From: Streptomyces sp. CA-278952
GTDB taxonomy: Bacteria; Actinomycetota; Actinomycetes; Streptomycetales; Streptomycetaceae
Direction of reading: 5' to 3'
Assembly: GCF_028747205.1 (NCBI RefSeq)
Contig: NZ_CP112880.1
Coordinates: 2,356,001 to 2,420,000 of the forward strand
DNA length: 64,000 nucleotides
The notes below the pieces were generated by a model. That model was given only the letters and a program-made list of their open reading frames with translations, was not told where the DNA came from and searched no databases. Position numbers and translations under genes: made by a program. Below are positions 62,371 through 64,000 of this stretch, piece by piece; positions within the stretch are counted from its first letter, which is position 1, and the number at the start of each line of letters is the position of its first letter.

Positions 62371-62588
62371 CGCGCGCAACCGCGAGACCGACGAGGCCCT
62401 GACGCACCCCCCACGCTGCGTTCCCAGCCGGCTCGGTCCCGGCGGAAAGCCGCCTTTCCTGCGCCCCGCTGACGTTGTCGATCACCTCTCGTCAGGCTTA
62501 TTTTCGGGCCTGGTTGGGTAGGTAGCGCGCTAACACCGATCGTTCTGAGGCCGATCGCGTCTCCGCACTCGCAGGGGAGGTGAAGGGT

Positions 62589-63002
62589 ATGGATCCCCTT
62601 ACGCTGGCGGCAGGCAGCGCACTTGTCGCAGCAATGGCCACTGACAGCTGGCAGCACTGTCGTGACACCGTGGCCGACTGGTGGAGGCAACGTCACGCGA
62701 ATCGAACAGACGGCCTGGATGCCGCCCTTGATCACCTTCGCACCCAGGTCCTGGCCACAGGTCAGGAGGGAGATCAGCCGGGTGAGGACGCCTTGACCGT
62801 GGCATGGGGAGAACGTTTTCAGCGGCTGCTCGACTCAGACCCTCACATGGCGTCCGAAATACGAGAGTTGATTGACCGGCTCACTCCGGCAGCCTCCTCC
62901 GCCAACGACCGGGATACTCCAGTGGTCACCATGAAGGCGGACGCACGGGACAACGCGCGGATTTTCATGGCCGGACGGGACCAGCACATCACTGGCTCAT
63001 GA
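62589..63002 (+). CDS. Small helical protein paired with an NB-ARC ATPase (candidate effector)
   Basis: A 137-residue protein. N-terminal helix, partly hydrophobic (MDPLTLAAGSALVAAMATDSW), charged helical middle, and a C-terminal tail with ARIFMAGRDQHI. The tail resembles the N-terminal motif of the next gene product (AQIFVAGNDMHA). Such matching short motifs at the end of one protein and the start of an NLR-like ATPase are known as bacterial amyloid signalling motifs. ATG at 62589 follows GGGGAGG; GTG at 62580 is in frame but lies inside the ribosome site. The stop overlaps the next ATG (ATGA). Confidence 0.8.
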   Translation: MDPLTLAAGSALVAAMATDSWQHCRDTVADWWRQRHANRTDGLDAALDHLRTQVLATGQEGDQPGEDALTVAWGERFQRLLDSDPHMASEIRELIDRLTPAASSANDRDTPVVTMKADARDNARIFMAGRDQHITGS

Positions 63003-64000
63003 GCGAGCTGAGCGGCGATGCCGGGGTTCGGCAGGAGATCCACGGCGAGGGACATGCTCAGATCTTTGTCGCGGGCAACGACATGCACGCGACATTCGCT
63101 GCCCCACCGCCGCCCGACGCCGTCGTCGCACTGCGCACGCTCCCCCGTGACATCGCGGCCTTCACCGGCCGCGACAGTGAACTCCTGCGCATCATGCGCG
63201 CGGACACCGTGTCCTCCGGGGCGTTGACCATGCACGCAATCGACGGCATGCCCGGAGTCGGCAAGACGGCTCTGGTCACCCGTATCGCCCATATCCTTGC
63301 CGACCGGTATCCGGACGGGCAGCTCTTCGTCGACCTGCACGCACACACTCCCGGGCGCCAGCCGGCGGACCCACAAGGGGTTCTGACCACCCTTCTCGTC
63401 GGCCTCGGTATTGCCCCCAAGGACGTACCGGGCAGCCTGGAGGCCTGCACATCACTGTGGCGCGACCGGCTCGCCGGTCGCCGCGTACTGCTCGTCCTGG
63501 ACAACGCCGCCGACGTGGCCCAGGTCGAACCGCTCCTGCCGTCCCACCGTGCCAACCTGGTCCTGATCACCAGCCGCCGACGCCTCCTGGGCCTGGACGG
63601 GGCGGCATTGACGTCCCTGGGGACGCTGCCCCCCGACCAGGCGAGCGACCTCTTCGTCCGCCTCACACGGCGCGAGCGGACGGACTCGAACAGCGACACC
63701 ATCAGCGACGCAGTCGCCGCGTGCGGTCACCTGCCCCTCGCGATCAACCTGCTCGCATCTCGTCTGGCGCATCACCCGGACCGTGAGCTCACGGCCTTCG
63801 TCGGCGAGTTCACCACAGCGCTGGACCGCCTGGACGAGCTCCAGGCCGGCAACCGTGCGGTGGCCGCCGCGTTCGACCTGTCCTACCGTGCGCTTCCCGC
63901 CGACAGGCAGCGCTTCTTCCGCTGCCTGGGCATGCATGCCGGAGTACATATCGACCCCTTCGCCGCGGCGGCATTGGGCAACATCTCAGTGGCTCAGGCA
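62999..64000 (+). CDS. NB-ARC/STAND ATPase, 3' end cut by the window
   Basis: The first 334 residues of a STAND-type NTPase. N-terminal motif GHAQIFVAGNDMHATF, then the NB-ARC domain: GRDSELLRIM, Walker A DGMPGVGKTALV, Walker B VLLVLDNAADV, the sensor LVLITSRRRLLGL and GHLPLAINLL, then a winged-helix segment (AVAAAFDLSYRALP). Such ATPases usually end in repeats (TPR or others) beyond the window. ATG at 62999 lies in the stop of the previous gene, so both are coupled. It is probably a conflict/defence or signalling switch. Confidence 0.9.
   Translation, partial: MSELSGDAGVRQEIHGEGHAQIFVAGNDMHATFAAPPPPDAVVALRTLPRDIAAFTGRDSELLRIMRADTVSSGALTMHAIDGMPGVGKTALVTRIAHILADRYPDGQLFVDLHAHTPGRQPADPQGVLTTLLVGLGIAPKDVPGSLEACTSLWRDRLAGRRVLLVLDNAADVAQVEPLLPSHRANLVLITSRRRLLGLDGAALTSLGTLPPDQASDLFVRLTRRERTDSNSDTISDAVAACGHLPLAINLLASRLAHHPDRELTAFVGEFTTALDRLDELQAGNRAVAAAFDLSYRALPADRQRFFRCLGMHAGVHIDPFAAAALGNISVAQA

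What the first reader, a model, noticed from the sequence alone, without database searches (positions are those of the whole stretch)
62589..64000. Candidate effector/NLR pair sharing a short amyloid-like motif
Two coupled genes (ATGA): a 137-residue helical protein and an NB-ARC STAND ATPase. The tail of the first (ARIFMAGRDQHI) and the start of the second (AQIFVAGNDMHA) share A-x-I-F-x-A-G-x-D-x-H. Matching motifs at an effector C-terminus and an NLR N-terminus are the mark of bacterial amyloid signalling (BASS-type) pairs, where the NLR templates the effector's aggregation to kill or signal. The module sits at the edge of a region with transposon remains, as conflict systems often do. Paired motif and coupling are seen; the function is inference.
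Basis: partly seen in the sequence, partly recalled or inferred. Interest (0 to 1): 0.85.

Follow-up and report, generated by a model that had tools for sequence, protein, structure and literature searches.

The report
Amyloid-motif effector and NLR pair
Two overlapping bacterial genes encode a probable cell-killing protein and its immune-type sensor, which seem to talk through a short shared amyloid-like tag; this fits a known kind of system, with an unusual version of the tag.

Summary
A 137-residue helical protein (62589-63002) overlaps by ATGA an 873-residue NB-ARC/TPR protein that runs past the window; the two share A-x-I-F-x-A-G-x-D-x-H at C- and N-terminus. No shuffle of 2000 matches the likeness. 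The motif lies outside the folded parts and was not found in other NLR relatives of the genome. Of 88 intact effector homologues from the genus, 78 have the motif at the N-terminus of the next gene. Cognate motifs resemble each other more than permuted pairs. Where the consensus Gln (VYQAGRDQ) is replaced in the effector (here Met), it is usually replaced in the partner (here Val): of 81 pairs 10 are non-Q in both, 68 Q in both, 3 mixed. The same effector domain is fused to NB-ARC in other genomes. Best reading: a Bell/NLR amyloid-signalling (BASS-type) pair. Amyloid formation and killing are inferred, not shown. BASS1-10 profiles were not available, so the motif family is unassigned; it does not match the one published BASS3 peptide tested. 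The transposon context was not confirmed. A known kind with a divergent motif.

The parts
62589..63002 (+). Effector gene, 137 aa (alternative start GTG at 62580)
   Evidence: homologue in 161 of 295 genus genomes at E<=1e-3; no Pfam, NCBIfam or PADLOC family at E<=1
62589..62888 (+). Bell-like helical domain, residues 1-100: hydrophobic first helix, five predicted helices
   Evidence: mean pLDDT 60, modest; W21 and W73 invariant in the 58 aligned sequences
62955..62990 (+). Effector-side motif ARIFMAGRDQHI in a tail modelled as disordered (residues 101-137)
62999..63002 (+). ATGA overlap: NLR start within effector stop
62999..64000 (+). NLR gene, cut by the window end; whole gene G000:C1:2418999-2421620, 873 aa, NB-ARC plus TPR
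63056..63091 (+). NLR-side motif AQIFVAGNDMHA
63227..63775 (+). NB-ARC domain (residues 77-259); P-loop GMPGVGKT at 63245-63268
   Evidence: PF00931, 32.4 bits, cut-off 23.5

Best explanation
An NLR-controlled amyloid signalosome of the BASS kind. The TPR/NB-ARC protein is a sensor: on binding its (unknown) trigger and ATP it oligomerises and brings several copies of its N-terminal motif together. These nucleate a cross-beta stack that recruits and templates the same motif in the C-terminal tail of the effector. The clustered Bell-like helical domains then act at the membrane through the hydrophobic N-terminal helix and kill or arrest the cell, limiting phage or another invader. Shown here: gene coupling, shared motif, its conservation in adjacent genes across the genus, no comparable motif in other NLR relatives of the genome, co-variation within cognate pairs, and direct Bell-NB-ARC fusions elsewhere. 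Inferred: nucleation, amyloid, membrane action, death, trigger.
For: Motif similarity beyond chance. 78 of 88 intact effector homologues have the motif in the next gene's N-terminus; 53 of those 78 partners carry an NLR-type P-loop and 9 are nSTAND1-like (by pattern; Pfam run only on some: NB-ARC for the window NLR, nSTAND1 for the L036 partner). Cognate likeness exceeds permuted pairs at four redundancy cuts, n=66, 48, 25, 10, each p<=5e-5 (the 78 downstream pairs). Central residue: 10 non-Q in both, 68 Q in both, 3 mixed among 81 pairs; columns 4, 5, 10 and 11 covary most. Bell domain and NB-ARC in one ORF: five ORFs, Pfam NB-ARC in 4 of the 4 tested. Tail disordered in the model. Published BASS architecture is the same (PMC7889193, passages).
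Against: No amyloid or toxicity test was possible. The fold model is weak (mean pLDDT 60) and no solved HeLo/MLKL-like fold was matched (best E 1.5). The motif does not match the published BASS3 peptide (E 69), and BASS1-10 profiles were not available. 7 of 88 effectors have no convincing partner within the range examined. In the window's own clade, 2 of 7 effectors (G214, G390, sister loci) lie downstream of an NLR that has the Q-type motif, against the co-substitution rule. On the Bell tree only 2 independent contrasts lie on supported branches (they mostly go the same way), too few for a test. In G209 the window-type effector scores slightly higher with the other NLR of the genome than with its own (35 against 33).
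Confidence: 0.74

Rival explanations
1. The shared motif is a non-amyloid docking element: NLR and effector tails pair as a small defined beta-zipper or both bind a third protein, and the NLR activates the effector by ordinary oligomer scaffolding.
For: Everything seen (coupling, conservation, covariation) is also expected for a docking interface; the motif core is short (about 12 residues) and the M/V form lacks the central Gln.
Against: Docking surfaces are usually complementary, not alike; here cognate partners tend to carry like residues at like positions, as in-register stacking would need. A BASS3 effector-side peptide and an archaeal NLR-side peptide of the same gene layout gave amyloid-like aggregates in published tests (PMC8086366, section 13 read).
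Confidence: 0.18
2. A regulatory or peptide-biosynthesis module: the NB-ARC/TPR protein is related to HaaT (RiPP) and AfsR (regulator) and the small protein is an adaptor, with no killing.
For: NCBIfam HaaT 703.9 bits and AfsR 371 bits.
Against: Both below cut-off (1125 and 1430); no radical SAM or precursor gene was recognised by eye among the adjacent ORFs listed (most not searched by HMM); the partner family includes an nSTAND1-WD40 protein and membrane proteins, and Bell is fused to NB-ARC elsewhere.
Confidence: 0.06
3. Chance likeness of two unrelated tails.
For: The NLR motif alone is not found genome-wide at E<=10.
Against: 0 of 2000 shuffles; the four sister pairs with a downstream NLR keep the motif, three of them 65-68 residues before the P-loop like the window pair, the fourth (L010) 190 before it with a membrane helix between.
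Confidence: 0.01

Closest known systems
BASS (bacterial amyloid signalling sequence) Bell/NLR pairs (Dyrka 2020, not held; known here through PMC7889193, PMC8086366, PMC9815663)
   Same: Adjacent or overlapping genes; small helical effector with C-terminal motif; NLR with the matching N-terminal motif; a Streptomyces relative carries the effector (L036), so filamentous actinobacteria.
   Different: Motif family (ASGxxRVYQAGRDQHI consensus) could not be assigned to BASS1-10; no match to the published BASS3 peptide. In this clade the central Gln is Met/Val in the effector and, in 5 of 7 loci, Val/Ala in the NLR.
Fungal HET-S/NWD2, HELLP and sigma amyloid signalosomes
   Same: Motif at effector C-terminus and NLR N-terminus, neighbouring genes, membrane-acting helical effector (from PMC7889193 and PMC8280340 passages and recall).
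   Different: No sequence or fold match to HeLo/HELL found (one of 58 members gave SesA at E 0.079).
HaaT (NF041717), cyclophane-RiPP NB-ARC/TPR protein
   Same: NB-ARC plus TPR core aligns over residues 34-819.
   Different: 703.9 bits against a cut-off of 1125; the alignment starts at model position 83, so the N-terminal part differs and holds the amyloid-like motif here.

Membership tests
BASS Bell/NLR pair | NLR gene and small effector gene adjacent or overlapping | tested here: met
   ATGA overlap; NB-ARC + TPR
BASS Bell/NLR pair | Same short motif at effector C-terminus and NLR N-terminus | tested here: met
   family-wide 78 of 88
BASS Bell/NLR pair | Effector domain is Bell: alpha-helical bundle with hydrophobic helix | tested here: inconclusive
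   Five helices predicted, mean pLDDT 60; same domain fused to NB-ARC elsewhere; published Bell profile not available
BASS Bell/NLR pair | Motif belongs to one of families BASS1-10 | not testable with these tools
   Dyrka 2020 not held. The single published BASS3 peptide tested does not match, so BASS3 in particular is not supported
BASS Bell/NLR pair | Motif outside the globular domains | tested here: met
   effector residues 101-137 pLDDT below 50; NLR motif before NB-ARC; no 12-mer above 8.4 in 15 other NLR matches of the genome against 21.8
BASS Bell/NLR pair | Motif forms amyloid, propagates as prion, cross-seeds | not testable with these tools
   needs peptides or a fungal model
HeLo/HELL/MLKL effector | Detectable fold or sequence homology | tested here: not met
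   best E 1.5; no such chain among 4 matches at E<=1; one of 58 members SesA E 0.079; the query model is weak
HaaT RiPP system | NF041717 above cut-off | tested here: not met
   703.9 of 1125 bits

The most novel reading that the evidence does not exclude
One effector family is wired by one amyloid motif to several kinds of receptor: NB-ARC NLRs, nSTAND1-WD40 proteins, charged membrane proteins, and short proteins with the motif inside, one membrane helix and an outside domain, that is, outside-in amyloid receptors in bacteria. Within it, paired replacement of the stacking glutamine by Met/Val makes an insulated second channel, of which the window pair is an example: 3 of the 5 genomes with a complete hydrophobic pair of this clade (G000, G180, G209) hold a second, glutamine-type pair as well, while the two genomes whose effector sits beside a glutamine-type NLR (G214, G390) showed no second full-length effector.
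Probability: 0.3. Interest if true: 0.75.

Novelty: new member of a known kind. Interest (0 to 1): 0.42.

Why it matters
The pair adds a natural variant set in which both partners changed the same motif position. That makes a general question testable: what keeps amyloid signalling channels in one cell from cross-firing. The own genome holds a second, glutamine-type pair (L050), so specificity can be tested with native parts. The membrane-bound partners seen in relatives would widen amyloid signalling in bacteria beyond NLRs.

Tried and rejected
Considered and rejected: chance; motif as part of the NB-ARC/TPR fold (15 other matches in the genome score at most 8.4 against 21.8); HaaT/AfsR membership (below cut-offs); BASS3 membership by the one published peptide.

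Mended on checking: the first run of the NLR-relatives control read seven minus-strand loci in the wrong frame; one search repeats it on the right strand, with the frame equal to the reported one in 11 of 16 loci (the other five are cut by a locus end). The N-terminus is in view for 12 of the 15 other loci; two of the 15 (L106, L109) are one protein. An earlier idea that only hydrophobic-pair genomes hold further effector-domain matches did not hold: at E<=1e-3 all 7 clade genomes have at least two matches, some partial; only the narrower statement on full-length glutamine-type pairs stands. I lowered the probability of the novel case from 0.35 to 0.30 for this.

Led nowhere: PADLOC gave only a generic TPR model for the NLR; Rfam was not searched; solved structures gave no relative; Foldseek none with E<=1. 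A text search for three fragments of the motif in papers found none, which says nothing about figures or supplements.

Limits: the first partner scan looked only within short loci and counted only downstream partners; the wider look covered eight of the ten effectors without a downstream partner (L007 was seen through, L028 was not refetched), plus the L074 locus and G390. It turned up the exceptions to the glutamine rule. In the L074 locus the counted partner is a short ORF with Arg, while an upstream NLR there has Gln, so one of the two partner-only changes may be a decayed copy. Permutation p-values treat clusters as exchangeable; the tree test has no power. Genome searches score a limited number of candidates per genome, so their counts are lower bounds.

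Full report
WHAT IS THERE. The window is G000:C1:2356001-2420000 of an 8.2 Mb one-contig genome. At its right end an effector gene (62589-63002, 137 aa) overlaps by ATGA an NLR gene (62999 onwards) that ends at G000:C1:2421620 with 873 residues. The NLR has NB-ARC (PF00931, 28.8 bits, cut-off 23.5) and TPR repeats (TPR_12, six stretches). A 67-residue DUF397 protein starts five bases after the NLR stop. The effector has no hit at E<=1 in Pfam, NCBIfam or PADLOC.

THE MOTIF IS REAL. ARIFMAGRDQHI (effector residues 123-134) and AQIFVAGNDMHA (NLR residues 20-31) score 41 by BLOSUM62, the best of their tails; 0 of 2000 shuffles and 2 of 723 other ORF N-termini reach that. In the same genome a profile of the effector motif finds, at E below 1e-6, only the two effectors and the NLR of the second pair; the next matches are at E 0.28 or worse, and the window's NLR is not among the matches (150 of 261 candidates scored). 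The evidence for the NLR side therefore rests on the pair, its position and its relatives, not on a genome-wide scan. Fifteen other matches to the NLR in the genome (16, one being itself; 14 distinct proteins) hold no 12-mer above 8.4 on the effector matrix, against 21.8 for this one; the N-terminus is in view in 12 of the 15 loci (which replaces a partly wrong-strand run).

THE FAMILY. A protein search finds the effector in 161 of 295 genomes of the genus at E<=1e-3; a profile of the close clade finds 201 of 392 at E<=1e-10; the profile of 58 homologues finds 128 of 197 in the order at E<=1e-6. I took 91 loci into the first analysis: 90 matched, two were dropped as broken or short, leaving 88. 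The C-terminal consensus is ASGxxRVYQAGRDQHI-ER. Of the 88, 78 have the motif core in the N-terminus of the next gene. Of the ten others, L007 has an upstream NLR (seen in L184), L082 a divergent NLR, and L028 a strongly diverged adjacent one (score 7.3), giving 81 pairs; seven have none that convinces (L058 has a doubtful upstream ORF).

PARTNERS. Of the 78, 53 have an NLR-type P-loop (one with a membrane helix before it), 9 are nSTAND1-like, 8 are short proteins with a hydrophobic helix after the motif, 4 are short ORFs without P-loop, and 4 are other (by pattern and hydropathy). Pfam confirms nSTAND1 plus WD40 for L036 and gives DUF3558, below its cut-off, for the outside part of L086; five other short membrane partners tested gave no family. 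The effector domain is also found in one ORF with NB-ARC: five such ORFs, four tested by Pfam, four NB-ARC. The sixth locus fetched as a possible fusion (L182) was not one. In 20 further loci chosen because the match stopped before the motif, the same domain has other tails, many of a VIQAG or VVQAR type, some next to an NLR and many without a recognised one in the stretch read.

CO-VARIATION. Cognate effector and partner cores are more alike than permuted ones at n=66, 48, 25 and 10 (p<=5e-5 each). Column by column (51 pairs at 70% cut), positions 4, 5, 10 and 11 give p<=0.0014; positions 2, 3 and 12 are weaker and 1, 6, 7, 8 and 9 are above 0.05. At position 5 the 81 pairs are: both non-Q 10, effector only 1, partner only 2 (both Arg), both Q 68. 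The effector-only case is L007; its sister in G390 is the same arrangement and was not counted. On the Bell tree (81 rows, 106 columns, poorly resolved) the effector state changes 5 times and the partner state 8 times; only 2 independent contrasts lie on supported branches, which mostly go the same way, so the tree neither proves nor denies independence. The natural reading is that like residues stack on each other, as in an in-register amyloid; gene conversion between the copies is not excluded.

THE WINDOW CLADE. Seven of 392 genomes hold it (221 bits or more; next 186.5). Five have an NLR directly downstream with Val/Ala at the central place; two (G214, G390) have instead an upstream Q-type NLR. 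At E<=1e-3 all seven have at least two matches to the effector profile, but a second match that reaches the end of the motif is seen only in G000, G180 and G209, and those three are glutamine-type pairs with their own NLR (L050, L037, L054). In these three genomes the cognate pairings score better in sum than the crossed ones (13, 18 and 8 BLOSUM units); in G209 the window-type effector alone scores slightly higher with the other NLR. This is suggestive of insulation, no more.

STRUCTURE. AlphaFold2 with two sequences gives helices 3-18, 21-35, 43-59, 66-83 and 85-98 (blocks of pLDDT 53-78) and nothing ordered from 101 on. No solved structure matches. So the Bell assignment rests on architecture and fusions, not on fold.

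LITERATURE. Seen: PMC7889193 (passages), PMC8086366 (passages and section 13), PMC9815663 (passages), PMC12261475 (abstract and three sections), PMC7885112 (passages), PMC12881547 and PMC8280340 (passages). Dyrka 2020 was not held. These describe ten BASS families at the C-terminus of Bell and N-terminus of NLR proteins in neighbouring genes of multicellular bacteria, amyloid-like aggregation of a BASS3 peptide, and cell death as a hypothesis. PMC9815663 notes an ARD triplet near the end of BASS2; the family here has mostly GRD, so this is only a hint. A search for transmembrane receptors with bacterial amyloid signalling motifs listed one paper, on a fruit fly, not read; it shows only that this library gave nothing on the point. 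The likeness of the membrane partners to the fly receptor PGRP-LC is recalled.

VERDICT. It is a known kind, widespread in the genus, with a divergent motif version whose paired change of the central residue is the most useful new point.

Noticed in passing
L069:2618-3490, L042:2603-3487, L032:1896-2594, L090:2644-3492, L095:1590-2402, L025:935-1486, L086:2230-3498, L089:1590-2144: Partners that are not NLRs: motif at the N-terminus, then a hydrophobic helix (at least two in L089) and, in the others, a probably extracytoplasmic part (hydropathy only). They look like outside-in receptors that use the same motif.
   Followed up: partly
L177:764-5632, L178:1499-5920, L179:929-5467, L180:731-3181, L181:948-3482: The effector domain in one ORF with an NB-ARC protein (L179 not scanned by Pfam); L180 and L181 keep a motif-like linker between the two.
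   Followed up: partly
L157-L176 and L182: Same effector domain with other C-terminal tails (VIQAG, VVQAR and VFAVQGGNVIVHQ types), some next to an NLR, many without one in the stretch read.
   Followed up: partly
G000:C1:3481403-3481798 and following gene (L050): Second effector/NLR pair in the same genome with the glutamine-type motif (SRVYQAGRDQHI / GRVFQSAGDQHI).
   Followed up: yes
L005:5626-5829 (G000:C1:2421626-2421829): DUF397 gene five bases behind the NLR stop; possibly part of the same operon.
   Followed up: no
L080:1602-2714, L088:1605-2636, L092:1605-2696: Partners with N-terminal motif, a middle rich in charged residues (coiled-coil by eye) and hydrophobic helices near the C-terminus; no Pfam family for L080, the others not tested.
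   Followed up: no
L189:1080-3983: NACHT partner with a membrane-type helix between motif and P-loop.
   Followed up: no
listing, many glutamine-type NLR N-termini: A His-rich run (EHHHH) follows the NLR-side motif directly; it is absent in the five Val/Ala-type NLRs of the window clade.
   Followed up: no
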